The position numbers were made by a program, and so were the translations under genes. The notes under the pieces were generated by a model. The model had not been told where the DNA came from. It ran no database searches and worked only from the letters and a program-made list of their open reading frames with translations. A stretch of 64,000 nucleotides of DNA from Catenulispora acidiphila DSM 44928 (lineage in GTDB: Bacteria; Actinomycetota; Actinomycetes; Streptomycetales; Catenulisporaceae): contig NC_013131.1 of the NCBI RefSeq assembly GCF_000024025.1, positions 5,022,001 to 5,086,000 on the forward strand, in the 5' to 3' direction. Below are positions 24,881 through 42,270 of this stretch, in pieces; the first letter of the stretch is position 1; each line of letters begins with the position of its first letter.

Positions 24881-24932
24881 GGGGCGACCCTAGCGGAAGA
24901 CAGCTTGTTGCGATAGATCGTTATGTGGGAGT

Positions 24933-24948
24933 GCGGAAACGTATCCGC
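24933..24948. promoter_or_regulatory. candidate LacI-family operator
   Basis: GCGGAAACGTATCCGC is a 16-bp palindrome around a central CG with one mismatched pair, the shape expected of LacI-family operators. It lies 53-68 bp upstream of the lacI-type start codon, inside its promoter region. I did not find the same site in front of the alpha-galactosidase. Confidence 0.55.
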
Positions 24949-24996
24949 GCAGTACACGCGCGTTATTACGCCGTCGCGGTCGCGCGAGGGCGATCA

Positions 24997-25028
24997 GCGC
25001 CGCCGGGCAGATCGATGCCCGGCGGCGC
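24997..25028 (-). terminator. hairpin terminator of the alpha-galactosidase gene
   Basis: A perfect 13-bp stem (GCGCCGCCGGGCA / TGCCCGGCGGCGC) with a 6-nt loop begins 5 bp beyond the alpha-galactosidase stop codon. No T tract is present on the leftward transcript. Confidence 0.65.
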
Positions 25029-25033
25029 CGCTT

Positions 25034-27217
25034 TCAGGGCTGAACCGTCATCGCGAAGACATGAATAGCCGGGTCGCTCGGAACAGTAACGGTCTTCACC
25101 GTCTTCGTCGCATCAATGGCGATCGAGTTGTAGAACACGTCGTAAGCGGTCCCGAAGTTCGCCGGTCCGCTCGGCGTGTTCCGGTGATCGGTGACGATCG
25201 CCGGCGTGGCGCCGTAGCCGGTCGGCGACGAGCAGCACCAGTTCGGGAAGCCGAGACTGCCCGTGCTGGACGTGCCGTCGGTGTACGCCACCGTGACGGT
25301 GTCGGTGCTGAAACCCGCCTCCGAGCCGAGGAATCCGAGCTTGGAGCCCTGCCCGGCGAGGTTCACCATCACCCCGCTGCCCGCCACGTTGTCGTTCGTC
25401 CCGGCCGCTGCCGACGGCCAGGTGAACGTCGTGCCGCCGGCGCTGATCGTCGCCCCCGGCGTGGCGCCGGCTGTGGCGAGCGACTGCGCCGAGTAACTGT
25501 CGCCGTCCCCGTCGAAGTTGCCGGGCGCGGTGTTGGTCTCATCGGTGATCGCGGTGTTGTTGAACGCGCCGGCCAGCGTCGGGAACGGCGTGTTGGTGAC
25601 GTTGGACAGGTCCGCGCTGTCGGACGCCGGTCTGCCGCGATCGCGGTAGGCGACGGACGTGGTCAACGTCGTCGTCACCTTGCCCGGCGGTGGAGCGCTG
25701 GCGGTGACGACGAACGTCGCCGTCGCCGACGTCCCCGGCTTGACGTTCTTCAACGACACCGAAGCCGGCGTCGCCGTCCAACCGGTCGGCAGCTTCAGCG
25801 TGACAGAGGGCTGCTGCGCGTCGAAATACCCGTGATTGGCGAAGGAAACGCTGACCTTCGTGGGTACCCCGGCGGCGAGCGGTGCGCTGCTGATCGTCGC
25901 GGCGGTGTGGATCGGCAGGTGCTTGTCGCCTCCGGGGTGCACGCGGTAGATCACCGTCGAGTGCGGTGCGAGGGACGCCGAAATGGTGCCGTCGCTGGCG
26001 CTCGTGGCCTTGCTCACCAAATCGGTCAGCTGGAACGGCGCGCCGCGGCTCGGCAGGCCGATCTTCGCCGCGGTCGTGGTGACCGTCTGCGCCGTGTCGC
26101 CCTTGTTGAACAGCACGACCGACACATCGCCGTCCGCGAGCGGCTTGGCCAGCACGTCGTAGCCGGTCCCGGACTGCACGATCGTCCCCTGCGCGCCGAG
26201 CCGGTCCTGGTCCACGGCCACGACATCGGGGTTCGAAACGATCCCCACCTCGGCCGGGGTCAGCTTCGACAGGTCGGTGGACAGCAGGATCGGCGAGGCC
26301 ATCTCGGCCCACAGCGTCATCTGGGTCTGCTCCTCGGTGGGGGTCAGCCCGCCGTTGCCGATCTCCAGCATGTCCGCGTCGTTCCAGTGCCCGGGACCGG
26401 CCCACTGCGCCAAGCCCGGGGTGTTGTCCTCGCTGTAGTTCTCCAGCACGCTCGGCCAGGCGTCGTAGATGTCCGAGCCGAAGCGCCACAGGTTGCCGTG
26501 CTGGTAGAGCCAGGTGAGCTCGTCGGTGAAGTCCGAGCCGGAGCAGCAGACGTAGGCCGGGGCGGACTCGGAGAACAGCATCGGGCGGTGCGTGTTCAGC
26601 AGCGCCTGGCTGGCCTCGGTGTAGACGATCTGCGCGACCTGGCTCTCGGTCTTGCCGGGGAACTGGTCCATCGGCTCGTAGCAGTAGTCGAGCTTGAGGT
26701 AGTCCACGCCCCAGGAGGCGTAGAGGTCCGCGTCCTGCTGGAAGTGCCCGTAGCTGCCTGCGGCGCCCTGGCAGGTGTAGTAGCCGGCGTCCTCGTAGAT
26801 GCCGAACTTCAAGCCCTTGCTGTGGATGTAGTCGCCGAGCCATTTCAGACCGTGCGGGAAGCGGGTGGCGTCGACCTGCAAGTCGCCGTTTGCGTCGCGG
26901 GTCTTCTGCATCCAGCAGTCGTCGATGTTGACGTAGTCATAGCCGAGTTTGTTCAGGCCCAGCTTGACTATTTCGTCGGCGGTCTTGGTGAACAGCGCCT
27001 CGTTCATGTCGCTGTTGCATTCAAAGCCGGCCCAGTCGTTGAAACCCATCGGCGGGGTCAGCGACAGGCCGTTGTAGGAGGGGTGGGTGTTGATCGCGGG
27101 AGTAGCTGCCGTGGTGCTGGCCGAGACCGCGGGCGCGGCAGCGGTCACGGCGCCGAACACCATGACGGCCGCGGCGACGGCTCCGAACAGGCTCCGGCGT
27201 GGGGCGGTGCGGGACAT
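25034..27217 (-). CDS. secreted GH27 alpha-galactosidase with NEW3 and C-terminal accessory domain
   Basis: A 727-residue exported enzyme releasing terminal alpha-galactose. Signal peptide 1-33. Residues about 48-330 form the GH27 barrel: TPPMGFNDWAGFECN, YDYVNIDDCWM, the nucleophile in YLKLDYCY (Asp177), the acid/base in WRFGSDIYDAW (Asp249), and PGHWNDADMLEIGNGG. An all-beta C-terminal barrel cap (about 340-430) is followed by a NEW3-type Ig domain (about 440-545). The last ~160 residues (from FNNTAITDETN) are a domain that also occurs twice in the SGNH hydrolase at 33684. The ribosome binding site is GGAGGTGAT directly before ATG. It is probably regulated by a sugar-responsive repressor such as the adjacent LacI protein. 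Confidence 0.93.
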   Translation of the reverse strand: MSRTAPRRSLFGAVAAAVMVFGAVTAAAPAVSASTTAATPAINTHPSYNGLSLTPPMGFNDWAGFECNSDMNEALFTKTADEIVKLGLNKLGYDYVNIDDCWMQKTRDANGDLQVDATRFPHGLKWLGDYIHSKGLKFGIYEDAGYYTCQGAAGSYGHFQQDADLYASWGVDYLKLDYCYEPMDQFPGKTESQVAQIVYTEASQALLNTHRPMLFSESAPAYVCCSGSDFTDELTWLYQHGNLWRFGSDIYDAWPSVLENYSEDNTPGLAQWAGPGHWNDADMLEIGNGGLTPTEEQTQMTLWAEMASPILLSTDLSKLTPAEVGIVSNPDVVAVDQDRLGAQGTIVQSGTGYDVLAKPLADGDVSVVLFNKGDTAQTVTTTAAKIGLPSRGAPFQLTDLVSKATSASDGTISASLAPHSTVIYRVHPGGDKHLPIHTAATISSAPLAAGVPTKVSVSFANHGYFDAQQPSVTLKLPTGWTATPASVSLKNVKPGTSATATFVVTASAPPPGKVTTTLTTSVAYRDRGRPASDSADLSNVTNTPFPTLAGAFNNTAITDETNTAPGNFDGDGDSYSAQSLATAGATPGATISAGGTTFTWPSAAAGTNDNVAGSGVMVNLAGQGSKLGFLGSEAGFSTDTVTVAYTDGTSSTGSLGFPNWCCSSPTGYGATPAIVTDHRNTPSGPANFGTAYDVFYNSIAIDATKTVKTVTVPSDPAIHVFAMTVQP

Positions 27218-27226
27218 ATCACCTCC
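27218..27226 (-). promoter_or_regulatory. near-perfect Shine-Dalgarno of the alpha-galactosidase
   Basis: On the minus strand GGAGGTGAT immediately precedes the ATG. It is complementary to the 3' end of 16S rRNA over nine bases and fixes the start codon. Confidence 0.7.
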
Positions 27227-27394
27227 GAGGGAGAGAGGACTGATCTCGCCGAGTCACCGTAAGAAGTGCGGGCGCCGCGCGCAAGTGTTTGCCAGGGGTC
27301 AGTTTCAATCAGTTCCGCGCAGCGTTCGCGCAGGAGCGGCCGTCGCGGGATATCAGGCCTCGACGATCGTCGGCGTGTCGGCGAGACTGATCTG

Positions 27395-29392
27395 ATGACG
27401 CGGTGGGGTCGGCTTTGGCAGCGTATGACCCGGCTTTTCGACGTGGACGCGGTGCCGGTGACCGTCGTCGACGACATGGCGCCGGACCCGGCGGGCTGGA
27501 GCGCCGGCTACGCCGACACCGCCGAGACCGGCTATCGCACCGTGGCACGCCGGCTGCCGATGCTCGTGGTGACCTCGTTGCGGTTGGCGGCCGAAGCTTC
27601 CAAGCCGCGCACCATCGCGCTGCTCGTGGTGCAGACCGCCTCGTCCTTCGCCGGGGCGTTCAGCCTCTACGCCACCACCGATGTTCTGGCGCCGCTGTTC
27701 GGCGCCGGCGCCACCCCGGACAAGATCCGCGCGGCGCTGCCGTCGATGTTCGTGGTGCTGGTGCTGACGGCGTCACGGTCGTTGTGCGACTCGGTGGCCA
27801 AGGCGTTCGCGGCGCAGCTCGGGCCGATGATGGACGCCAAAGCCAGTATCCGGCTGCAGGAGCTGTGTACGCGCGCCGAACTCGTCGCGTTCGACAAGGC
27901 CGATTGGGTCGACGCCTCCCAGCGTGCCGACCGCGGGTCGATCTCGGCGCGCAGCATGCTGGTCATCACGCAGCAGGTGTTGCAGAGCCTTGCGACGCTC
28001 GTCGGCGTCGCCGGGGTGCTGGCGGTGCTGCACCCGGTGCTGGTGCCGCTGCTGTTGCTGTCGGTGGTGCCGCGCTGGTGGGCCGCTGTGCGGGTGGCGC
28101 GGTTGGACTACAAGGTGTTCGTGCGCTGGGTCGAGGGGCGGCGTCGGCAGAGTCTGCTGATCGGGCTGTCGGTGACGACCACCTCGGCCGCTGCGGTGCG
28201 TGCGCTGTCGCTGTCCGGCTACCTGGTCGAGCGTTACCGCCGGATCACCGATGCCTACCTGGCTGAGCGGTTGCAGCTGGTGCGGGCCGAGACCTCGTCG
28301 ATGATCGCGGGCAATGCCATCGCAGGGTTCTTCACCGGCATCGTCTACGCGGTGCTCGCGCTGCTGTTGTGGCGGCAGGCGATTCCGCTGGCGGTCGGCG
28401 GGACAGCGTATCTGGCGGTGAGCCGGGTGCAGCAGGCGTTGCTCAGCTTGGCGATGGATATCAACGAGCTGTATGCCGAAGGCCTCTACCTGGAGGACTA
28501 TCGCTCGTTCTGCAACGACGCCGCCGGACATCTGCCGCCGCTGGGAAGCGAGCCGGCGCCGGCGGAGTTCGAGGAGATCGTCGCCGAGGATGTGGTGTTC
28601 GCCTATCAGGGGGCGAAGACGTCGGCGGTCGCGGGCGTCTCGCTGCGGGTGAAGCGCGGGCAGGTGGTGGCTTTCGTGGGGGAGAACGGCGCGGCGAAGA
28701 CCACGATGGCGAAGCTGTTGGCGCGGCTGTACTTGCCGGATTCAGGGCGGATCCGCTGGGACGGCCACGACAGCGCCGCGATGGACGTGGAGACGCTGCG
28801 CTCCCGGATCGCCTTCATCGACCAGGACCACACGCGCTTTCCGTTCACGGCTGGTGAGAACATCCGTATCGGGGAGTGGACCGCTGATTTCGAACAGACG
28901 CGGATCGAGGAGGCGGCACAGCACGCCGGGGCACACGAGTTCATCAGTGCTCTGCCACGCGGCTACCACACGCTGTTGGAGCGGAGCCTTAGCGGCGGGC
29001 TTTCGGTCTCCGGTGGGCAGTGGCAGCGGCTGGCGTTGGCGCGTGGCTTCTTCCGGCGCGCGGCGCTGGTGATCGCCGACGAGCCGACCTCCAGCCTGGA
29101 CGCGGCAGCGGAGGCGGCGTTCTACCGTCGGCTGCGCGAGTACGGCGGGACGATCGTGATGATCACGCATCGGTTGGGGAACGTCGCCGAATGCGCGGAC
29201 TACATCTACGTGTTCGCCGACGGGCTCGTTGCCGAGCAGGGGACGCATGCCGAGCTGGTCGCCGCAGACGGTTGGTACGCGCGGTCTTATCGGCTGCAAC
29301 GGCAGAGCTTTGAGAAGGGCGACCGCCTCGGCGAGCCGGTCGGACCGGTTGGACCGGTTGGACCGGTCGAGTCGATAGAGCCGGTCGCGTAG
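27395..29392 (+). CDS. ABC exporter (fused permease-ATPase) of the lanthipeptide locus
   Basis: A 665-residue half-transporter. A membrane domain with about five to six segments spans roughly residues 50-370 (for example TIALLVVQTASSFAGAFSLYATTDVL, GVAGVLAVLHPVLVPLLLLSVV, NAIAGFFTGIVYAVLALLLW). The ATPase follows at about 400-640, with Q-loop region AFIDQDHTRFPFT, signature LSVSGGQWQRLALARG, Walker B ALVIADEPTSSLD and the H-loop MITHR. Walker A reads GENGAAKTT: the usual last glycine before Lys is Ala. No C39 peptidase domain is present, so it cannot cut the leader itself. The C-terminus ends in a GPVGPVGPV repeat. The start is placed at the ATG at 27395; another ATG lies at 27425. It converges on LanM, 67 bp away, and probably exports the modified peptide. 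Confidence 0.88.
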   Translation: MTRWGRLWQRMTRLFDVDAVPVTVVDDMAPDPAGWSAGYADTAETGYRTVARRLPMLVVTSLRLAAEASKPRTIALLVVQTASSFAGAFSLYATTDVLAPLFGAGATPDKIRAALPSMFVVLVLTASRSLCDSVAKAFAAQLGPMMDAKASIRLQELCTRAELVAFDKADWVDASQRADRGSISARSMLVITQQVLQSLATLVGVAGVLAVLHPVLVPLLLLSVVPRWWAAVRVARLDYKVFVRWVEGRRRQSLLIGLSVTTTSAAAVRALSLSGYLVERYRRITDAYLAERLQLVRAETSSMIAGNAIAGFFTGIVYAVLALLLWRQAIPLAVGGTAYLAVSRVQQALLSLAMDINELYAEGLYLEDYRSFCNDAAGHLPPLGSEPAPAEFEEIVAEDVVFAYQGAKTSAVAGVSLRVKRGQVVAFVGENGAAKTTMAKLLARLYLPDSGRIRWDGHDSAAMDVETLRSRIAFIDQDHTRFPFTAGENIRIGEWTADFEQTRIEEAAQHAGAHEFISALPRGYHTLLERSLSGGLSVSGGQWQRLALARGFFRRAALVIADEPTSSLDAAAEAAFYRRLREYGGTIVMITHRLGNVAECADYIYVFADGLVAEQGTHAELVAADGWYARSYRLQRQSFEKGDRLGEPVGPVGPVGPVESIEPVA

Positions 29393-29459: not shown

Positions 29460-32339
29460 TCACAGCGGATCGTCGAGCACCAGCACCGACGGCAACGCAC
29501 TGCCCGCACCCATACGCAGCAGCTGATACGCCACGCCGCCGAGCCCGGACATCATCGCCGGGGAGAAGGCGTCGCGCGCCATGCCGCTGATCGCGCCGTT
29601 CTGCTCCAGGCTGGCGACGATGCGCGCCTCGAAGCCTTCCCGGTCCACGCTTGGCGGCGCGAAGCCGTCCCGCAGCGCGGCGTCCATCAGTTCCCAGACA
29701 CCGAGTTCGCCATGGCACAGCGTGTGATTCCAGCCCATGCCGTGCCCGAGGGCGGCGTTCGCGGCGCGCCGCAGGAGGTCCTCGACGCCGTCGGCCGGCC
29801 AGCCGCGACGAAGCAGGTCCAGCTGCGTCAGGGCGATCCCGACCGAGCCGTGGCACCAGGCGTTGGCGGTCAGCCCGGGTTCGATCTCGCGCAGGTCGCT
29901 CCAGCCTCCGACCTCCGGCACATAGCAGGACTCTTCGAAGGCGAACGCGGCGCGTGCCGTCTCGGCCGCGCGGGCGTCACCGGTCGCCAGCGCGAGCCGG
30001 GCCAGGGCCCAGCCGATGCCGGACGCGCCGTGCGCACAGCCGCCGAGGCCGCCGGGCCAGCGCAGCGTCGGCCATGTCATGCCGACGTCCTTGGCGATCG
30101 CGGCGTCGCACAACACCGTGCCGACGTGCGTGGCGATGTCGGTCCAGCGCTGCTCGCCGGTCGCGGCGCTCAGTTGTAGCAGCGGCACGATGGCGCCCGC
30201 CGGACCGGCGCAGACTTCGTACTCATCGGCGTCGCCGATCGCCTCGGGGATCAGCGCTGCCAGAGTGCGCGACCGTTCCAGGGCTTCGTCGCCGACCACG
30301 CCGAGGCGGCGCAGCGTGAGCCAGGTCCACAGCTCCGAGCCCAGACCGACCCACCCGCCGGGCTCGCGCGGCCGCATCGCGACGCCGTCGGCGCGCAGCT
30401 TCGCCGCGTGGTCGCCGGCCAGGCGGATGGTCTGGATCGTGGCGTCCAGGAGTGCGGGCAGATCATCAAGGCGGTCCGCGCGTCCGGCGTCGGATTCCCG
30501 CTCGTAGGCGGCGAGCAGTAGCGCGACGCCGGGCAGCCCGCTGTACAGGTCCGGACTGAGCGGCTGGACCACCCAGCCGGTGAGGCTGAGCACCGGCGCG
30601 ATCCAGGTCGCGGTGCCGTCCGAGCCGCGGGTCGCGGTGTCGCGGACCTCGCGGACCAACTCTGCCGCCAGAGTCCTGCGACGCTTATCAAAGTCCTGCG
30701 TACTGACGTCTGTGGGCGCACGCAGTCCCTTGCTCGGCGTCCAGTCGGCATTCAGATACGCGCTGACCAGCGTCGCGCGGATGATGCCGCGATCGAACTC
30801 CAGATCCGCGCCGCGCCAGCGGGTCAGCGCGTCGGCGACCAGGTCCTGCTCCGGCAGCCAGTGCGTGCCGCCGGGTCCGGTGAGCCGCCCGGAGCGGGGC
30901 GTGGTGCCGAAGTAGGGGATGTCGCCGGTCAGCAGGTCGGCGATCTCCGCCGCGACCACGTCCGGATCGCCCGGCGCCGCCGGGGACTGCCGCGCCATCT
31001 GGACGAACAGCTCGGTGGCGCGTTCGACGGCGGCGGGTTCGCCGTGCAGCGAGACCGGATGCCAGAGCATGCGCGCGACTTCTTCGTAGACGTCCGTGGC
31101 GCGCAGCACCATGCGGATCTGACAGTCGCTGAACACTGACATCGCCGGTTCCAGGATGCCTGCGGCGTCGGCTGCGGCCAGCGCGGCAGAGCCCTCCTCG
31201 AACCCGGCGGCGACCGTCTCCCAATGGTCGGCGAGGTTCGGCTTCGGGCTGGGCAGACTGGCGGCGGGCTGGGGTGTCGCCTGGGCGAACCCGAGGCGTG
31301 CGCGGTCGGTTCCGGCGTCCAGGATCACCGGGACTTGCCCGGAGGGTTGCTCGTCAGGCAGCGCGCCGACAGAGGAGGAGTCCACGCCGCGCCAGCCCAG
31401 GGCGGCACCCCGGTTGGGGAGCATGCCGACGCGCAGCACGGTCTCGTCCACGAGCTTGGACGCGGTGTCGACGGCCTGGCCCATTCCCGAGGGCGGACCG
31501 GCGGGGATGGTGCTGAACAGGGTTTCGCAGTCCACGACGATCGGGACCGGACCCGCGGCGATGACGTTCTCGGTGTGCAGGTCGCTGCCGCCGAGCAGGC
31601 GCATCACCGCCAGCCAGTGGCCGACGCCGCGGTAGAAGGTGGTCAGCTCGGCGTCGGAGGCGCAGTAACGGTGCGGGATGAACTCGCTCCAGCCATAGCC
31701 GTCGCGCACGACGACCTCTGGGACGCGGATGCGCGTCGCCACCGGGACGTCGGGGAGCACGGTCTGGAGCAGGTGAGTCAGGGCTTTGTCGACCTCGACC
31801 GGCCGGGGCTTGTAGACGACGGTCGCCTCGGCGAGTTCCAGGATCGCGACGGACTGCCCGCCGCGATGGCTGTCGCCCGCGCCGAACGTGACGTGTCGTA
31901 GCTCGCCGGGGTCGATGGCCGTGAGCGTCCGCAGAGCTCTGCGATCGACGGCGAACCGCTCGGCCAGGGTCGCGGCGGCGTCGGCGCGCCGCTGCATGAC
32001 GGTGTCCAGACGCTGCTGGAGCGTGGGATAGCGGCTGCTCAGGGAGTGCCAGAACGTGAGGCTGTCAGCGAGGTTCACGAACTCGTCCCAGCGTCCGGCC
32101 GAGTCCTCGGCGGTCAGCCGCCCGGACAGGCGCGCGGCGTTGAGTTCCAGAAGCAGGACTCTGCTGACCTTGCGGTGGACGGTCTCCAAAATGGCGCGCT
32201 CGGCAGCCTCGGCGATGGCGGCGCGCTCGGGGTCGGACAGGTCTTCGACGGCGGCGAGCCGGGCCGCCAGGCCGGCCGAGACCGGCGCGGCCAGGCAGCC
32301 CAGTGCTCCGGCGAACTCACCGGAGAAGCGGGAGGTCAC
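29460..32339 (-). CDS. lanM: class II lanthipeptide synthetase LanM
   Basis: A 959-residue bifunctional enzyme that dehydrates Ser/Thr in the precursor and cyclises them with Cys. The N-terminal ~600 residues are the kinase-like DUF4135 dehydratase (HVTFGAGDSHRGGQSVAIL, VVYKPRPVEVDKAL, GGSDLHTENVIAAGPVPIVVDCETLF). The C-terminal LanC-like cyclase starts near 610 (LYSGLPGVALLLAAYE) and keeps the Gly-rich and zinc motifs: GCAHGASGIGWAL, AWCHGSVG (Cys829) and LCHGELG (Cys875, His876). The GTG start lies 6 bp after the precursor stop codon without a good ribosome binding site of its own, so translation is probably coupled. The length is slightly below the usual 1,000-1,100. The complete set of motifs implies an active enzyme. 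Confidence 0.95.
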   Translation of the reverse strand: MTSRFSGEFAGALGCLAAPVSAGLAARLAAVEDLSDPERAAIAEAAERAILETVHRKVSRVLLLELNAARLSGRLTAEDSAGRWDEFVNLADSLTFWHSLSSRYPTLQQRLDTVMQRRADAAATLAERFAVDRRALRTLTAIDPGELRHVTFGAGDSHRGGQSVAILELAEATVVYKPRPVEVDKALTHLLQTVLPDVPVATRIRVPEVVVRDGYGWSEFIPHRYCASDAELTTFYRGVGHWLAVMRLLGGSDLHTENVIAAGPVPIVVDCETLFSTIPAGPPSGMGQAVDTASKLVDETVLRVGMLPNRGAALGWRGVDSSSVGALPDEQPSGQVPVILDAGTDRARLGFAQATPQPAASLPSPKPNLADHWETVAAGFEEGSAALAAADAAGILEPAMSVFSDCQIRMVLRATDVYEEVARMLWHPVSLHGEPAAVERATELFVQMARQSPAAPGDPDVVAAEIADLLTGDIPYFGTTPRSGRLTGPGGTHWLPEQDLVADALTRWRGADLEFDRGIIRATLVSAYLNADWTPSKGLRAPTDVSTQDFDKRRRTLAAELVREVRDTATRGSDGTATWIAPVLSLTGWVVQPLSPDLYSGLPGVALLLAAYERESDAGRADRLDDLPALLDATIQTIRLAGDHAAKLRADGVAMRPREPGGWVGLGSELWTWLTLRRLGVVGDEALERSRTLAALIPEAIGDADEYEVCAGPAGAIVPLLQLSAATGEQRWTDIATHVGTVLCDAAIAKDVGMTWPTLRWPGGLGGCAHGASGIGWALARLALATGDARAAETARAAFAFEESCYVPEVGGWSDLREIEPGLTANAWCHGSVGIALTQLDLLRRGWPADGVEDLLRRAANAALGHGMGWNHTLCHGELGVWELMDAALRDGFAPPSVDREGFEARIVASLEQNGAISGMARDAFSPAMMSGLGGVAYQLLRMGAGSALPSVLVLDDPL

Positions 32340-32345
32340 CTGCGG

Positions 32346-32540
32346 TCAGCAGCACTCGCCGCCGCGCGAGGCGGTGCAGGAGCTGCACGTCCCGCGGGTC
32401 AGGATGACCACGGCGCCGACGATGTCGGCCTCGGCGTACTTGCCGCCGGTGAACAGCGGGCCCGCGGGGCTGTCTTCCGTCGAGCCCAGCCAACCGCTGA
32501 GGATCGCGTCGGTGCGGTCGAGGATTTCGTTTTCGGACAT
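32346..32540 (-). CDS. lanA: lanthipeptide precursor (LanA-like), 64 residues
   Basis: A tiny gene ending 6 bp before lanM. The acidic leader (MSENEILDRTDAILSGWLGS...) is followed by PLFTGGKYAEADIVGAVVIL and a Cys/Ser/Thr-rich tail RGTCSSCTASRGGECC. All four Cys (52, 55, 63, 64) lie in the last 13 residues, together with six possible dehydration sites from Thr48 onward (Thr48, Thr51, Ser53, Ser54, Thr56, Ser58). A double-glycine site at Gly32-Gly33 would release a 31-residue core; cleavage nearer to RGTC is also possible. GGAGGT lies 6 nt upstream of ATG and a good promoter lies about 80 bp upstream. I cannot match the core to a named lanthipeptide. The role is inferred from position, size and composition and is strongly supported by context. 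Confidence 0.88.
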   Translation of the reverse strand: MSENEILDRTDAILSGWLGSTEDSPAGPLFTGGKYAEADIVGAVVILTRGTCSSCTASRGGECC

Positions 32541-32617
32541 GCCAAACCTCCGAAGGTGGCGGGAAGGTGGTGGGGCGCGAACCTGGGATCACCATCTGGT
32601 TCGTGCTCAATGTGTTC

Positions 32618-32646
32618 TGTATATATCTCACTGTGCGGACTGACAA
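32618..32646 (-). promoter_or_regulatory. promoter of the lanA-lanM operon
   Basis: On the minus strand TTGTCA (32641-32646, 5 of 6 consensus) is followed by a 17-bp spacer and TATACA (32618-32623, 4 of 6) inside an AT-rich patch (TATATATC-type) that stands out from the surrounding GC. The predicted transcript starts about 70 bp before lanA. Confidence 0.65.
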
Positions 32647-32714
32647 GCGGAAAGATACGGAAATTTCCACTCGATCCGACCCTGACAGAGTCCTGACATG
32701 CAGCGAGGTTGACC

Positions 32715-33620
32715 ATGGCTGATCCGTCGGCTCCGGAGCGCGAGGCGATGCGTGCGTTGGCCGCGCGAGTGGGCGATCGGGCCAACGCGCTGGCCGCTGA
32801 GGGGTGCGTCGCGGAGGTCCCGGCACTGTGGGAGACCGCGATCGCCGGTCTATCTGACAAGTCGTCACAAGCATTGATCACGCTCGCTTATGCCTGGTAC
32901 CAAGCGCTGCACGGGGAGGTCGAGCACGGGGTGCGGCTGGCGGCGGATCTGCGCGATTGTGCTGTGTCATCGGTGCGGTCCCAGGTCCGAGTACTGATTC
33001 GCAACCGTGTGCGGGTCGAGCCGGAGGTGGTGGAGCGGACGTGGCGGGCGGCGACCGGGATTCCGCTTCCTGCGTGGGCGTTTCTCTCCGACGCGGACAT
33101 CGATGACGTGGCGGAATGGATCGCGGCGTCGTCGTGGGAGGAGTCGAGGGCGCTGTACGGCGCGCTGGCCGGTCGGGTCACATCGCAGGATATTGAGTAC
33201 GTACTTGACGAGATCGTGTTGGGAGACGTCCGGCTGCGGACCGCGGTCTCGGTTCACCGGGCGGTTCTGGTGCTCGGCGGTGATGTCGGGTACCGCTGCC
33301 TGGGAGATCTGCCGGAAGTGGCTCGGGTTGCCGGTGCGGCCATTGTGGCGCGTGACTGGAATGTCTTGCGGGCGTGCGGGACGGTCGAGCTGATCGTGCA
33401 CGGTCGGGCGTTCTTGGGCGGCGTGCACGGGGTGATTGCGGAGTTGATGGCAGCCGGCGATATGGCGGTCAGTCCCGCGATGGCTGAGCGGGTCGCCGCC
33501 TTGGCGCGGGACGCCCAGCCGTGGGAGCGCCGGCAGGTCGCCGCGGATCTTGCCGCGACCGGAGACGTCGCGATGCTCGGGCTAGTGGTGGGAACGGACG
33601 CTGAATCCCTTGACAGGTAA
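32715..33620 (+). CDS. unknown, mostly helical protein divergent from lanA
   Basis: A 301-residue protein that I do not recognise. It has no signal peptide or membrane segment. Its composition (Ala, Val, Leu, Arg, Glu) and spacing suggest an all-helical repeat fold such as HEAT/ARM-like helices: QALITLAYAWYQALHGEVEHGVRLAADL, SVHRAVLVLGGDVGYRCLGDLPEVARVAG, MAERVAALARDAQPWERRQVAADLAA. The ATG at 32715 has GAGG 7 nt upstream; an in-frame TTG lies 6 bp earlier. The gene starts 174 bp from lanA on the opposite strand and shares its regulatory region, so immunity, regulation or peptide handling are possible, but nothing in the sequence proves membership of the cluster. Confidence 0.72.
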   Translation: MADPSAPEREAMRALAARVGDRANALAAEGCVAEVPALWETAIAGLSDKSSQALITLAYAWYQALHGEVEHGVRLAADLRDCAVSSVRSQVRVLIRNRVRVEPEVVERTWRAATGIPLPAWAFLSDADIDDVAEWIAASSWEESRALYGALAGRVTSQDIEYVLDEIVLGDVRLRTAVSVHRAVLVLGGDVGYRCLGDLPEVARVAGAAIVARDWNVLRACGTVELIVHGRAFLGGVHGVIAELMAAGDMAVSPAMAERVAALARDAQPWERRQVAADLAATGDVAMLGLVVGTDAESLDR

Positions 33621-36443: not shown

Positions 36444-36448
36444 GCTAA
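36296..36448 (+). pseudogene. IS481-type transposase deletion remnant
   Basis: The 50-codon frame begins with MVHRNAPLSETERR, the usual N-terminus of actinobacterial IS481 transposases, and jumps directly to their C-terminus, GWLHTYNHHRGHTALKGSPP...NLTGQYS. About 250 residues holding the HTH and DDE catalytic core are missing, so it is non-functional. The TAA stop lies in the flanking duplication, outside the inverted repeat. Confidence 0.85.
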
Positions 36449-39400
36449 CCGAGGCGTGCCTCGATGGAGGCGATGATCTTGGGGCGGAGGTCGGCGGCCT
36501 TGATGACTTCGTCGACGGAGCCTACTTGGACGGCTCGTTGGATGCTGTGGACGCGGTCGAATTCGGTGGCTACCTCGCCGAGTTTTTCGGCTCGGACGGA
36601 GGCTCGGAGTTCGTCGAGTTCGGCGGCCAGGGCGGCTCGGTCGGTGCCGGAGGCGGCGGTGACGCGGGATTCCAGGTCGCGGATGCGGGGGTCGTTGGCG
36701 GTGCGGGAGTTCACGTCGCCGGAGAAGACCACTGCTGCGGCTGGGGCGCCGCCGAGGACTGAGGCGTAGGAGCCTTCCAGGGCCAGGACCGTCATGTTCG
36801 GGTTCAGTGCCTTGGAGAAGACCACGAAGGCGCCGCCGTGGTAGCGGGAGATCACGCAGAAGACGATCGGGCCCTCGAAGTTGACGATGGCGCGTCCGAT
36901 CTCGGCGCCGTACTCCAGCTGGAGCTTGCGCATGGATTCCGGCGAGCCGTCGAAGCCGGAGAGGTTCGCCAGCACCACCAGCGGACGGTTCCCCGAAGCG
37001 GAGTTGATCGCGCGCGCGACCTTCTTAGACGACTGCGGGAACAGCGTGCCGGCGGTGTACGTGTCCGGACCGTCGGTGGGCGGGAACCCACGGCGCGGAA
37101 CGGCTCGCGACTCGATACCGACCAGGCAGACCGGCAGCCCGCCGAGATGCACGTCCTGCACCACCGACGTCTCGGCGCCCGCCATCCCGGCCCAGCGCTC
37201 CAGCACCGGGTGGTCCTGGTCCGACAGCGCCCGCATCACGGTCCTGATGTCGAACGCCTTCTTGCGGTCGGGGTTCGCGGCAGCGCTGAAGATCTCGCCG
37301 ACGGTCGTGAAGTCCGAACCGGCGAACGTGTGCGGGAAGCTCGACACATCGCGGTCGTACGGGTCGTCGGTACCAGCGCGCCGCGGCGAGGTCTCGCCCG
37401 GCGCGATGTAGGTGTGGTCGTAGTGAGACATGAGCACGTCGCGAGCGGCAGCCAGGCTAGGCGCCCAGTACTGGGCCTGCCCGTTCGGGCCCATGACCCG
37501 GTCGTAGCCGCCGATGCCGAAGTTGTCCTCGGCCGAGACACCGCCGGAGAAGTCCAGCGCCTGCTTACCGGTCAACACCATCGCAGAGTCCGGAGTCATG
37601 ACCAGAACACCACGCGTGTGCATCAGCATCGTGGCTTCGGCGTTCCAATAGGGCTGCGCACCAACGTTGATGCCGTTGACGACAACGTTGATCTCGCCGC
37701 CATCCTGCGTGAACTCCACAATCCGCTTCAGCGCAGCAGCCACCCAGTCCATGTTCTCCGTACCGGACTGCATCGAGATGCGAGCGCCGGAGGACAAGGC
37801 GTACCACTCGACAGGAACCTTCATCTGCTCAGCAAGGTCCAGCGCGGCGATCACCCGGCGGCACTCAGGCTCAGACAGCGCGCCCAGAGACTTCGTGGGG
37901 TCGCCCAACAGCAGCACCCGCGTCACCCCCTGACGGTGCCGCCGGGTCTTCGTGCTGATGACGCCGGCCACCATCGCCGCGCTGTTGCGCCCCTTGGGCC
38001 GGTCGACCGGGACCAGGGTGTGCGCCTCGTCGAGGTCGTGCTCGGTGAAGTCGCCGAGGGAGTCGACCAGCTCGTAGGGGTACACCGTCCCGCGGCTGGC
38101 GGCGCGCATGACCTTCAGCCGGTAGTCGTCCAGCGGCTCGATCGGGCTCAGGGTGGGTTCGCCGACGTTGAGCGAGGGGTTGCCCGCGGTGTCGAAGCGG
38201 ACCCGGACCGCGATCTTGATCAGCTCGCCGGTCTTCCACGAGCGCTGCCGCCCGATGAGCTCGATCTCCTCCAGCCCCGCGCCGACCGTGGAGGGCAGGA
38301 TGCGCTGGGCGATCAGATACAGCTCCGAGCGCTTGATGTCCGACACCGGCCACAGGTAGACCACGACCCGGTTGGTGCTGAACCGCTTGTTCGAGGGCTT
38401 GCGCAGCTGCGCGCGGCGGATGGAGTCCACGCACGCCGCGATCGCGTCCTCGGCGGTGGGCAGCGCGACCAGGCGGCCGTCGTGCTCGCGCAGCTCGGTC
38501 AGGTCGCGTACCTGGGTGAAGGCGACCAGCCGGTCGTCGGCCGGGTTCTCCCGCGCCACGCACTGATACAGGTACACGTCCTCGTCCGAGGACGGCAGGC
38601 GCGTCAGGTCGAACTTGTTCAGCCGCTCCAGCTGCATCCGCTCGGCGATGAACGGGTGCAGGCCGCGGATCAGCCGCTCCTCGGTCAACCCGGTGGTGGA
38701 ACGCCGGAAGGTGAAGTGGTGGTGCATCACCGAGTTGCGGCGCCCGGCGACCGTCGCGGTCACCCGGCGCACCTGCTGCGGCAGCGGATGCGCGCTGATC
38801 ACGCGCTGCAACGCGGTCGCCGCCTCGTCGGTGTCCGGCTGGTTCTCCCAGAGCAGGTAGATGTCGGCGTCCAGGGCGCCGGCGGAGGCGGCCAGCTCGG
38901 CCAGGCCGTCCAGGGCGTCCCCGAGCCGGTCGAACGGCACGGCCGCCGACGCCAGCTGCGAGCCGTCGTGCTCGGCGACGATGAACGGGTTGCCGCCGAC
39001 CTCGGTGGTCCGCACGCCGGTCAGACCCTTGTTGCCGTAGTAGCGCCGGGTCAGGACCTCCAGCATCGCCGAGTTGTCCAGCTCGGTGTGCACCAGGCGC
39101 TGGGCCAGCAGCCGGACCAGCGGCTCGGTGCTGCGGACCATCTCGGCGACGCGCTCGTCGCGGTCCTCGGCCCGCGGGTTCTCGTCCAGGTATCGCAGGT
39201 TCTTACGGATGGCGGCGTAGACGCGGGCCCGGTTGCGGCGCAGCAGCGGCTGGCCGAACCACGCGTAGACCACGCCGCGCGCCAGGTCCGCGACGTTCGG
39301 GAAGCGCACCTGCGTGGCCGCGATCAGCCGCTCCAGCGCCAGGCCGGTGGGCTCGCGCAGCAGCTCGTCCGGCGGCAGCTCGCGCAGCCAGGCCCGCATC

Positions 39401-41937
39401 AGCGCGGCGATCACGGTGGCGTCCGTCGCAGAACGCTGACGCGCCAGGAAGATGCGGAACACCGCCGCTTCCAGCTCCGGCGAACGGTCCAGCTCGGTGA
39501 CGCCGTAGTGCGCCAGCACCTTGCGCAGCGCGGCCTGGAAGGACTCCGGCAGCCCGGCGCGCTCCACGTCCAGGCTCTGCAGGTAGGTGTGGAAGTACTC
39601 GTGCGCGCTGTGCAGCTGGCTCTCGCCGTTGCTCTCCTCGGCGGCAGCCGCGGGACGGTTGCGGCCGAGGTCCGCGAGGTCGGCGAAGACCTCGATCAGG
39701 CTCAGCTCGCCGGACAGCGGACGCAAGCCCTGCTCGACGGCGGTGGTGCGGGCCTCGACGTAGCCGGCGAGGATGCGGTCCTCGTCGTGCGGGTCCACGT
39801 CGAAGCCGAGCAGCAGACTGCGAAGGTCCTCCTGGCCCTGCGCCACGCGGGCGCGGACGGGAACCTCGGCGGGAGCGGCGGGCAGGTCCAGCTCGGCGGC
39901 CTCGGTCGGCTGCGCGGAGGCGGAGGCGGCGGCTTCGTCGGCGTCCTCCTCGACGATCTGCTCCAGGCGGAGCAGAGGGGCGCCGGTTTCGACCTGGCTG
40001 CCGACGGTGACGGCGAGTTCTTTCAGGCGGGCTTTGAACGGTGCGCGCAGCACCGTTTCCATCTTCATGCTTTCCAGCACCACCACCGGCGCGCCGGCTT
40101 CGACTTCGGCGCCGACCTGCAACGGGGTGGCGATCACCAGCGCCGGGGCAGGAGAACGGATCACACCGCCCTCGTCAAGGGACACGCGGTGGGTGACGCC
40201 GTCCACCTCGACCTGGTGCACCGAGCCGTGGGTGGCGGTCAGGAGCCGGAAACGTGAGCCGTTGACCGCGATCTGACCGGTGTGCCGGTCGAAACGGTCC
40301 AGGACGACGTCGGCGGTCTGGGACTGCGCGCCGTGCCCGTCGCCTGCCTCTATCCCCACGCGGAACCGGTGCGCACCCACGCGCGCGACCCGGACTTTGT
40401 AGCTGACGCCGCGCAGTTTCAGGTCCAGCGGTCGGCCGGACTCGTGCTGGACTTGGGGGCGTCCGCCGGATGCGGTAGACAGCAGCCGGGCACGCTCGAC
40501 CCGTTCCTCGTCTTCGTAGGCGTCGATGGCGGCGGCGGCCAAGGCGACTGCGGCGTTGCGGTGGGAGACCAGGCGGCCTTCGGCGCGGACCCGGTCGATC
40601 CAGCCGGTGTCGGCACTCGCGTCGATCACCTCGGGCTGGTCCAGCAGGTCCAAAACGAAGCTCTTGTTGGTGGTTCCGCCTTCGATCACCACCGAGGTTT
40701 CCGCCATCGCGCGCCGCAACCGGCCCAGGGCCTCGTCGCGGTCACGGCCGTAGGCGATCACCTTGGCGATCATCGAGTCGAAGTCGGCGGGGATGGTGTC
40801 ACCCTCCGACACGCCAGTGTCGACGCGAATACCGGGACCGGCAGGCAAGTCGAGGCGTGCGATGCGCCCCGGCGAGGGCGCGAAGTCGCGGTCCGGGTCC
40901 TCAGCGTTGAGCCGAGCTTCGATCGCGTGCCCGCGCTCAGCCGGGGGACGACCCTCCAGCTTCCCGCCGCCCGCGACGTGCAGCTGCGCCTTGACCAGGT
41001 CGAACCCGGTCGTCAGCTCGGTGATCGGGTGCTCGACCTGAAGCCGGGTGTTGACCTCCAGGAACGCGAACTGCTTGTCACCAGGGTGGTAGAGGAATTC
41101 GACGGTCGCCGCGCCTCGGTAACCGACCCGCACCGCGAGACGCTCAGCCGATGACTTCAGCTCAGCAGCCTGCTCAGCGCTGAGCACCGGCGACGCCGAC
41201 TCCTCGATCACCTTCTGATTGCGGCGCTGAATCGAGCAGTCGCGGACGCCGAGCGCCCACGCCGTGCCCTGACCGTCGGCGATGACCTGCACCTCGACGT
41301 GCCGAGCGCCGGTGACCAGACGCTCCAGGAACACGATGCCGGAGCCGAAGGCGCGCGCCGCTTCCTGGCTGGTGCGCTCGTAGGCGTCGACGAGTTCGGA
41401 TTCGTTCGTGATCACGCGGATGCCGCGTCCGCCGCCGCCGGCGGTCGCCTTGAGCATCAGCGGATAGCCGATCTGCCCGGCCGCCTCGATCGCCGTCTCC
41501 AGCGTCTCCACGGCGCCGCGGCTCCACGGAGCCACCGGGACGCCGACCTCCTCGGCGATCAGCTTCGCGCCGATCTTGTCGCCGAGCTGGCGCATCGCCT
41601 CGGCATCGGGACCGATGAACGTCACGCCGATCCGGTCGCAAAGCTCTGCGAACGCCGGATCCTCGGCCACGAAACCCCAGCCGACCCACGCCGCGTCCGC
41701 GCCGGACTCCAGCAGGGCGTGCTCCAGCACCTTCAGATCCAGGTACGGACGCGCGGCGGCCGGGCCGAGATCGAAGGCGATGTCGGCCTCGCGGACGAAG
41801 GTGGCATCGCGGTCCACGTCGGTGTGCAAGGCGACGGTCTCGATCGGCGTCGCGCTTTGCGCGCTCAGCTCCCGGACCGCGTGGATGAGCCGCATCGCGG
41901 CCTCACCACGGTTGACGATGGCGACACGACTGAACAC
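36445..41937 (-). CDS. single-chain biotin carboxylase-BCCP-carboxyltransferase (eukaryote-like acetyl-CoA carboxylase layout)
   Basis: An 1,830-residue fusion. Biotin carboxylase occupies about 1-450 (RVAIVNRGEAAMRLIHAVREL, KATAGGGGRGIRVI, ERLVTGARHVEVQVIADG, EVNTRLQVEHPITELTTGFDLV). The biotinyl domain has VVVLESMKMETV with biotin-Lys 625. A long central region of about 550 residues resembles the ACC central domain (RRYYGNKGLTGVRT, FTFRRSTTGLTEERLIRGLHPFIAERM). The C-terminal carboxyltransferase spans about 1290-1790 (SAAMVAGVISTKT, EWYALSSGARISM, NVVVNGINVGAQPYW, LTGKQALDFSGGVSAEDNFGIGG, ANLSGFDGS). GTG at 41937 is chosen for AGGAAGG about 10 nt upstream and because it begins VFSRVAIVNRGE; the frame stays open 42 codons further. 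The TAG stop lies in the IS481 target duplication. It most likely makes malonyl-CoA or a related product. Confidence 0.9.
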   Translation of the reverse strand: MFSRVAIVNRGEAAMRLIHAVRELSAQSATPIETVALHTDVDRDATFVREADIAFDLGPAAARPYLDLKVLEHALLESGADAAWVGWGFVAEDPAFAELCDRIGVTFIGPDAEAMRQLGDKIGAKLIAEEVGVPVAPWSRGAVETLETAIEAAGQIGYPLMLKATAGGGGRGIRVITNESELVDAYERTSQEAARAFGSGIVFLERLVTGARHVEVQVIADGQGTAWALGVRDCSIQRRNQKVIEESASPVLSAEQAAELKSSAERLAVRVGYRGAATVEFLYHPGDKQFAFLEVNTRLQVEHPITELTTGFDLVKAQLHVAGGGKLEGRPPAERGHAIEARLNAEDPDRDFAPSPGRIARLDLPAGPGIRVDTGVSEGDTIPADFDSMIAKVIAYGRDRDEALGRLRRAMAETSVVIEGGTTNKSFVLDLLDQPEVIDASADTGWIDRVRAEGRLVSHRNAAVALAAAAIDAYEDEERVERARLLSTASGGRPQVQHESGRPLDLKLRGVSYKVRVARVGAHRFRVGIEAGDGHGAQSQTADVVLDRFDRHTGQIAVNGSRFRLLTATHGSVHQVEVDGVTHRVSLDEGGVIRSPAPALVIATPLQVGAEVEAGAPVVVLESMKMETVLRAPFKARLKELAVTVGSQVETGAPLLRLEQIVEEDADEAAASASAQPTEAAELDLPAAPAEVPVRARVAQGQEDLRSLLLGFDVDPHDEDRILAGYVEARTTAVEQGLRPLSGELSLIEVFADLADLGRNRPAAAAEESNGESQLHSAHEYFHTYLQSLDVERAGLPESFQAALRKVLAHYGVTELDRSPELEAAVFRIFLARQRSATDATVIAALMRAWLRELPPDELLREPTGLALERLIAATQVRFPNVADLARGVVYAWFGQPLLRRNRARVYAAIRKNLRYLDENPRAEDRDERVAEMVRSTEPLVRLLAQRLVHTELDNSAMLEVLTRRYYGNKGLTGVRTTEVGGNPFIVAEHDGSQLASAAVPFDRLGDALDGLAELAASAGALDADIYLLWENQPDTDEAATALQRVISAHPLPQQVRRVTATVAGRRNSVMHHHFTFRRSTTGLTEERLIRGLHPFIAERMQLERLNKFDLTRLPSSDEDVYLYQCVARENPADDRLVAFTQVRDLTELREHDGRLVALPTAEDAIAACVDSIRRAQLRKPSNKRFSTNRVVVYLWPVSDIKRSELYLIAQRILPSTVGAGLEEIELIGRQRSWKTGELIKIAVRVRFDTAGNPSLNVGEPTLSPIEPLDDYRLKVMRAASRGTVYPYELVDSLGDFTEHDLDEAHTLVPVDRPKGRNSAAMVAGVISTKTRRHRQGVTRVLLLGDPTKSLGALSEPECRRVIAALDLAEQMKVPVEWYALSSGARISMQSGTENMDWVAAALKRIVEFTQDGGEINVVVNGINVGAQPYWNAEATMLMHTRGVLVMTPDSAMVLTGKQALDFSGGVSAEDNFGIGGYDRVMGPNGQAQYWAPSLAAARDVLMSHYDHTYIAPGETSPRRAGTDDPYDRDVSSFPHTFAGSDFTTVGEIFSAAANPDRKKAFDIRTVMRALSDQDHPVLERWAGMAGAETSVVQDVHLGGLPVCLVGIESRAVPRRGFPPTDGPDTYTAGTLFPQSSKKVARAINSASGNRPLVVLANLSGFDGSPESMRKLQLEYGAEIGRAIVNFEGPIVFCVISRYHGGAFVVFSKALNPNMTVLALEGSYASVLGGAPAAAVVFSGDVNSRTANDPRIRDLESRVTAASGTDRAALAAELDELRASVRAEKLGEVATEFDRVHSIQRAVQVGSVDEVIKAADLRPKIIASIEARLG

Positions 41938-42270
41938 CGGCCGGAGCCCTTCCTCTATTCCAAGGCACCAGTCGTGCGACCGGATGTGGGCTGGCCGGTT
42001 TCCCCGCGCAGTCGTTGGTGTCGGCCGGACGAGCTGGTTGTGACTGGTCGGAGTGTAGTGCAACGGGGGTGGGGGTCCGTGGAGCGTGAGGTGGAGGGCT
42101 GGCTACCGGTCAGTAGGGTGCCGGTCGTCCGGCGTGGCCATGGCGGTGCTGCGGGACTGGCAGGCGAGCCCGGGCTGCTGCGGATGACGATCGTCGCGGA
42201 TGTCGCCGACCCTGAACGCGATGTGCTGACGCCGAGGGAAGCCTTCATCGAGGGATATGCGGCGGGACGC
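41938..42270. other. 333-bp intergenic region upstream of the fused carboxylase
   Basis: It separates the alkylation-repair operon end from the carboxylase start, both leftward, and should hold the carboxylase promoter, but I find no convincing -35/-10 pair. On the plus strand an open frame from ATG 42184 (MTIVADVADPERDVL...) runs into the Ada-domain gene and has mildly coding-like composition; no homology or ribosome binding site supports it. Confidence 0.35.

What the first reader, a model, noticed from the sequence alone, without database searches (positions are those of the whole stretch)
29460..32540. Class II lanthipeptide locus with an unfamiliar four-Cys core
A 64-residue precursor sits 6 bp from an intact LanM. 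All four Cys and five of the Ser/Thr lie in the last 16 residues, RGTCSSCTASRGGECC, so the rings would be packed into a very small, positively charged C-terminal knot. The stretch between the double-Gly site and this tail (KYAEADIVGAVVIL) has no Cys and only hydrophobic/acidic residues. I cannot match the core to a known lanthipeptide. Motifs, promoter and ribosome binding site are seen in the sequence; product novelty is inference.
Basis: partly seen in the sequence, partly recalled or inferred. Interest (0 to 1): 0.82.

Follow-up and report, generated by a model that had tools for sequence, protein, structure and literature searches.

The report
Rhodanocin-type class II lanthipeptide locus
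A soil actinomycete carries a small, genus-conserved gene pair that should make a tightly knotted thioether peptide, but its supposedly unfamiliar tail is shared with peptides in Streptomyces and Lysobacter-type bacteria and belongs to an already recognised family (DUF6229, rhodanocins).

Summary
A 64-aa precursor (32346-32540, minus) lies 6 bp from an intact LanM (29460-32339, minus), with a good ribosome binding site and a promoter-like site conserved across the genus. All four Cys and five Ser/Thr lie in the last 16 residues.

It is a class II lanthipeptide locus, but the core is not unmatched. The precursor belongs to Pfam DUF6229 (5e-21), which published work shows to be class II lanthipeptide precursors (rhodanocin from Dyella, NMR structure; 21 of 27 Lysobacter precursors). 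Eight of ten Catenulispora genomes carry the same core. Nearly the same core (CSSCTASRPGxCC, CSSCSASGGGxCC, CSSCTGSxxxxCC) occurs in Xanthomonadales and Streptomyces, beside a LanM in every locus read.

Aligned on CxxCTxS, the core keeps most ring-forming positions of rhodanocin. From this I predict a compact knot with a backward Cys52-Ser58 lanthionine, plus a fourth ring rhodanocin lacks.

The double-Gly cleavage claim is weak. GG is not conserved, no C39 peptidase was found in the genome, and the published homologue was not cut by the C39 protease LahT150. ADIVGA is an alternative site.

A new member of a known kind; product untested.

The parts
32346..32540 (-). Precursor peptide (LanA), 64 aa, DUF6229/PF19740; core tail TRGTCSSCTASRGGECC (Cys 52, 55, 63, 64)
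   Evidence: translation; Pfam PF19740 E=5.2e-21; conserved in the genus
29460..32339 (-). LanM class II lanthipeptide synthetase, 959 aa, GTG start, 6 bp after the precursor stop
   Evidence: TIGR03897 537.5 bits; DUF4135 + LANC_like; key residues invariant in 36 homologues
32547..32551 (-). Ribosome binding site GGAGG, 6 nt before the precursor ATG
   Evidence: conserved in 8 of 8 Catenulispora loci
32618..32646 (-). Promoter-like site TTGTCA-17-TATACA for precursor and LanM; overlaps the invariant 12-mer AGATATATACAG (32617-32628)
   Evidence: phylogenetic footprint; single match in the window; single match of the 18-mer in the genome; function inferred
27395..29392 (+). ABC exporter (permease + ATPase, no C39 domain), tail-to-tail with LanM; possible exporter or self-protection pump (inferred). 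ORF opens at 27266, likely start ATG 27395
   Evidence: conserved in the 5 Catenulispora loci whose contigs reach far enough and hold the CSSC core, but so is the whole neighbourhood; homologues 36-37% identical lie directly downstream of LanM in L121 and L122

Best explanation
The locus makes a class II lanthipeptide of the DUF6229/rhodanocin kind. The promoter at 32618-32646 drives precursor and LanM as one transcript (inferred). LanM binds the conserved leader, dehydrates Ser/Thr among Thr48, Thr51, Ser53, Ser54, Thr56 and Ser58, and closes up to four thioether rings in the last 17 residues (inferred). By position-for-position homology with the NMR structure of rhodanocin, the predicted rings are Thr51 (or Thr48)-Cys55 and Thr56-Cys63/64 as methyllanthionines, and Cys52-Ser58 as a lanthionine that runs backwards, the Cys lying before the Ser. 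A fourth lanthionine, which rhodanocin does not have, would join Ser53/54 to the remaining terminal Cys. The leader is probably removed by a protease encoded elsewhere in the genome, not by a LanT-type C39 domain; cleavage after ADIVGA43 (21-residue product) is at least as likely as after GG33. The tail-to-tail ABC exporter is the best local candidate for export or self-protection. An antibacterial role is plausible from rhodanocin (weak, MIC 126 uM on Klebsiella for a non-native AspN product) but untested here.
For: PF19740 match 5.2e-21 over the whole precursor. LanM 537.5 bits with intact kinase-like dehydratase and zinc-cyclase residues, invariant in 36 homologues. LanM next to the precursor in all 38 loci fetched around DUF6229 genes, from Catenulispora, Streptomyces, Sphaerisporangium and Xanthomonadales; in four of them (L114, L118, L119, L123) the precursor is too different for tblastn with the window's peptide but is read directly. 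DUF6229 precursor shown to be a LanM substrate, with NMR rings T6-C11, C8-S14, T12-C23 and Dhb18 (PMC9576775). L114 and L115 fit all seven of those positions. 24 distinct precursors share CxxC[TS]xS with a Cys at or near the end; the 18 non-Catenulispora ones all have Thr/Ser two before the first Cys. Joint losses fit the rings: Streptomyces LYGFCSSP[TS]GS lacks both T6 and C11; Sphaerisporangium RPSSCTGA lacks both C8 and S14. The last 17 codons are the constrained part in Catenulispora: pN/pS 0.38 against 1.1 for the rest. No C39 peptidase found in the genome.
Against: No product, transcript or enzyme assay. In Catenulispora the Thr sits one and four residues before the first Cys, not two, so ring A is not exactly homologous. 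The fourth ring has no structural precedent in the family. The Sphaerisporangium sister peptide keeps S14 without C8, but gains a Cys at 13. The two joint losses are few events, not a statistical test. The ABC exporter is conserved along with unrelated neighbours, so its link is weak.
Confidence: 0.8

Rival explanations
1. It is a class II lanthipeptide, but the CSSC...CC core folds into a ring pattern different from rhodanocin (for example all Cys onto upstream Ser/Thr, or only partial cyclisation), so rhodanocin is a guide to the leader only.
For: PMC9576775 states that DUF6229 holds at least two groups with different ring patterns, and PMC11451712 finds six precursor families in Lysobacter. 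Catenulispora shifts the upstream Thr and adds a fourth Cys. LanM falls into two deep clades.
Against: CxxC[TS]xS with a terminal Cys is kept in both LanM clades and in rhodanocin-like L114/L115; two joint losses match the rhodanocin rings.
Confidence: 0.35
2. One reading: leader cut at GG33 by a LanT-type C39 transporter, giving KYAEADIVGAVVILTRGTCSSCTASRGGECC as a core with no known match.
For: A GG motif is present at 32-33 and kept in all eight Catenulispora CSSC-type precursors.
Against: GG is kept in 19 of 58 relatives; YAEADI after it is itself conserved, as in a leader; no C39 domain found in the genome, nor in 7 of 8 other Catenulispora genomes that hold DUF6229, nor near any DUF6229 locus searched; LahT150 did not cut the rhodanocin precursor; the core has matches.
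Confidence: 0.1
3. A silent or decayed locus: genes intact but not expressed or no longer making a product.
For: No expression data; no dedicated protease in the locus.
Against: Core and promoter-like site conserved genus-wide, LanM open and intact in the genomes read.
Confidence: 0.08

Closest known systems
Rhodanocin (FAST-RiPPs 'LanII', Dyella sp. 333MFSha, DUF6229; PMC9576775)
   Same: DUF6229 leader, LanM substrate, CxxCTxS core motif with a terminal Cys, EADIVG leader end; LanM in the same tree half as rhodanocin-like L114/L115
   Different: Four Cys instead of three, ending CC; Ser53/Ser54 between the first two Cys; shorter last ring; Thr one and four (not two) residues before the first Cys; actinobacterial. 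The Dyella sequence itself was not read here; it is represented by L114/L115, which fit its published positions.
Lysobacter DUF6229 class II lanthipeptides (PMC11451712; 21 of 27 unique precursors)
   Same: Same Pfam family; Xanthomonadaceae-type relatives read here end CSSCSASGGG[QY]CC, almost the same core
   Different: Leader of the other type (WLNGSE...TEAALTD), LanM only 41-42% identical, other tree half. That my unnamed G handles are among the paper's strains is not shown.
Streptomyces DUF6229 loci (L022-L035, unnamed)
   Same: CSSC[TS]GSxxxxCC or CSSP[TS]GSxGSWCC core next to LanM
   Different: LanM 41-44% identical; leader AEAALTD; some lack the second Cys. Not found described in the papers searched.
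Mersacidin / lacticin 481 type class II lantibiotics (from memory)
   Same: LanM-type synthetase, double-Gly-like leader motif
   Different: Core and leader unlike; no LanT with C39 here. Not aligned, a recalled comparison only.

Membership tests
Class II lanthipeptide locus | Fused LanM (DUF4135 dehydratase + LanC-like cyclase) with intact catalytic and zinc residues | tested here: met
Class II lanthipeptide locus | Adjacent precursor with leader and Cys/Ser/Thr-rich C-terminal core | tested here: met
Class II lanthipeptide locus | Lanthionine or methyllanthionine in the product | not testable with these tools
   needs mass spectrometry
Class II lanthipeptide locus | LanT with C39 peptidase (usual, not universal) | tested here: not met
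   no PF03412 match in the genome; local ABC lacks it. Common but not a defining requirement.
DUF6229 (PF19740) | Score above curated cut-off over the full profile | tested here: met
   74.8 bits against 25, profile 2-62 of 62
Rhodanocin proper | T6, C8, C11, T12, S14, T18, C23 pattern with three Cys | tested here: not met
   C8, C11, T12, S14 and a terminal Cys present; T6 shifted, no T18, one Cys more
Rhodanocin proper | Backward Cys8-Ser14 lanthionine | not testable with these tools
   positions present (Cys52, Ser58); linkage inferred

The most novel reading that the evidence does not exclude
The CSSC[TS]xSxxxxCC core, kept in two phyla and in both LanM clades, is the ancestral DUF6229 product: a four-ring knot within about 14-17 residues with a backward Cys-to-Ser ring and a fourth ring not seen in rhodanocin, released without a C39 protease.
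Probability: 0.4. Interest if true: 0.5.

Novelty: new member of a known kind. Interest (0 to 1): 0.3.

Why it matters
It ties an overlooked actinobacterial locus to a lanthipeptide family so far described mainly from Gammaproteobacteria, gives testable ring and cleavage predictions, and shows one compact core kept across two phyla. That kind of conservation suggests a fixed target or role rather than a fast-changing one (inference). The product's structure and use remain unknown, so the gain is a clear hypothesis, not a new kind of system.

Tried and rejected
Opposite-strand ORF 24923-27262 (+, 779 aa) first looked like part of a transporter pair; it has no family match and the coding-like frame is 25034-27217 (-), so it was set aside. 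LanM search in genome contigs gave few relatives, so the Pfam family was used instead. Search of papers for the core strings themselves found nothing. Two DUF6229 matches below the cut-off in a phylum-wide search (L005, L006) showed no convincing precursor-like peptide and were dropped. ABC exporter as a proven part: not accepted, because the whole Catenulispora neighbourhood is conserved. Proteases: no C39 found; PMC8960859 reports AplP-like and PttP1/PttP2-like proteases for class III peptides in work with C. acidiphila, and whether either acts on this peptide is unknown.

Full report
Observation. The window lies in a single-contig genome of 10,467,782 bases; that size and the named relative Catenulispora rubra (86% identical LanM, L007) point to Catenulispora acidiphila DSM 44928, which is my inference from memory. 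The precursor ORF 32346-32540 (-) and the LanM ORF 29460-32339 (-) are exactly as described, 6 bp apart. LanM scores 537.5 bits to TIGR03897 and carries DUF4135 and LANC_like domains. Lys177, Asp253, His255, Asn258, Asp270, His770, Cys829, Cys875 and His876, which I take as the catalytic and zinc residues from general knowledge of LanM and LanC, are invariant in 36 aligned homologues.

What the precursor is. It matches Pfam PF19740, DUF6229, end to end (74.8 bits, cut-off 25). No NCBIfam model matches it. Two papers in the library name DUF6229. PMC9576775 expressed the Dyella member with its LanM in E. coli, solved the rings by NMR and named the group rhodanocins: 23 residues, methyllanthionines T6-C11 and T12-C23, lanthionine C8-S14 with the Cys before the Ser, Dhb18, LL-lanthionine. 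PMC11451712 reports that 21 of 27 unique Lysobacter class II precursors are DUF6229, and that the precursors fall into six groups.

How widespread. The family is in 9 of 10 Catenulispora genomes, 8 of them with the CSSCTAS core, and in 14 of the 378 genomes sampled outside the family in its order, all of one genus, taken as Streptomyces from L008. It occurs in 16 of 247 and 28 of 299 genomes sampled around a proteobacterial hit at family and order level; names are not given, so the assignment to Xanthomonadaceae/Xanthomonadales rests on the Lysobacter and Dyella literature and is inferred. It is rare elsewhere: in a phylum-wide sample of 396 only the window's own genome exceeded the cut-off, and 2 of 398 did in a sample of the phylum around a Ferrovibrio genome. 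A LanM lies next to the precursor in all 38 DUF6229 loci of 7.5-20 kb read.

The core. Of 58 distinct tails, 24 have CxxC[TS]xS followed by Cys at or near the end. Examples: Catenulispora TRGTCSSCTASRGGECC; Xanthomonadales LVSHCSSCTASRPGLCC and LLTRCSSCSASGGGQCC; Streptomyces LLTGCSSCTGSWHSYCC; L117 AITGCSLCTGSMRINCCA. L114 (LVTDCAMCTGSIKNTIHIYCA) and L115 (LVTGCAMCTGSIEHTIRIACA) match all seven modified positions of rhodanocin. So the core is neither unique nor unmatched.

Inferred rings. Position 6 (Thr/Ser) is present in all 18 non-Catenulispora tails of this type. Two joint losses fit the rhodanocin rings. Six Streptomyces tails (LYGFCSSP[TS]GS) lose both position-6 Thr and the second Cys. 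Sphaerisporangium tail RPSSCTGARTIACC loses both the first Cys and Ser14. These are two events, suggestive and not a test. In Catenulispora, Thr51 or Thr48 must serve for ring A. The second terminal Cys comes together with a Ser between the first two Cys in these tails but not in rhodanocin-like ones, so a fourth Ser-Cys ring is my guess.

Descent. A LanM tree of 36 rows splits into two halves, both 100/100. One holds Catenulispora, Sphaerisporangium, rhodanocin-like L114/L115 and other YAEADI-leader xanthomonad loci. The other holds Streptomyces and TEAALTD-leader xanthomonad loci, including the CSSCTASRPG type. The tree is midpoint-rooted for drawing only. The CxxC[TS]xS core with CC end is in both halves, so it is probably old, or arose or moved more than once; I cannot tell which.

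Selection and control. In eight Catenulispora sequences the last 17 codons have pN/pS 0.38 against 1.1 for the rest (simple counts). TRGTCSSCTASRG is invariant. Upstream, AGATATATACAG is invariant, part of a TTGTCA-17-TATACA promoter-like site in most species; the 12-mer is found once in the window and the extended 18-mer once in the genome, at this place.

Cleavage and export. GG at 32-33 is kept in 19 of 58 tails. The genome has no C39 peptidase match (where 8 of 14 control genomes do), and where other DUF6229 genomes have one it is not close to the locus. LahT150 failed on the rhodanocin precursor. ADIVGA43 aligns with ADIVGG of L114/L115 and offers a second possible site. The protease is unknown. 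The C39-free ABC exporter 27395-29392 (+) is conserved in the genus, but so are all its neighbours; distant homologues sit directly after LanM in L121 and L122, and other C39-free ABC genes after LanM in L109 and L113.

Verdict. Real, intact and conserved; a new member of a known kind. The unfamiliar core is familiar once the family is known. What stays open is the ring pattern, the fourth ring, the protease and the use.

Noticed in passing
G000:C1:4204122-4206884 (L002/L003), outside the window: A second LanM-like gene (open frame 1039 aa, 35-40% identical) in the same genome; no Cys-rich precursor was seen next to it with a simple filter.
   Followed up: partly
window 32709-33620 (+): A 303-aa ORF divergent from the precursor, no Pfam or NCBIfam match, conserved at 57-68% in Catenulispora next to this locus.
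   Followed up: partly
L116 (Sphaerisporangium, G778:C20 about 51.4-51.8 kb): Two tandem DUF6229 precursors with different cores (RPSSCTGARTIACC and MASSCTCSRFCC) before one LanM; L107/L108 and L115 also have two tandem precursors.
   Followed up: no
L021/L043 (G404, same genus): One Catenulispora genome has a different DUF6229 core (AFCGTDCSYSHTRYCC) with a 53% identical LanM and none of the usual neighbours.
   Followed up: no
window 36445-42063 (-): A single 1872-aa protein fusing biotin carboxylase, biotin carrier and carboxyl transferase domains, with a stretch matching ACC_central, like a eukaryote-style acetyl-CoA carboxylase.
   Followed up: no
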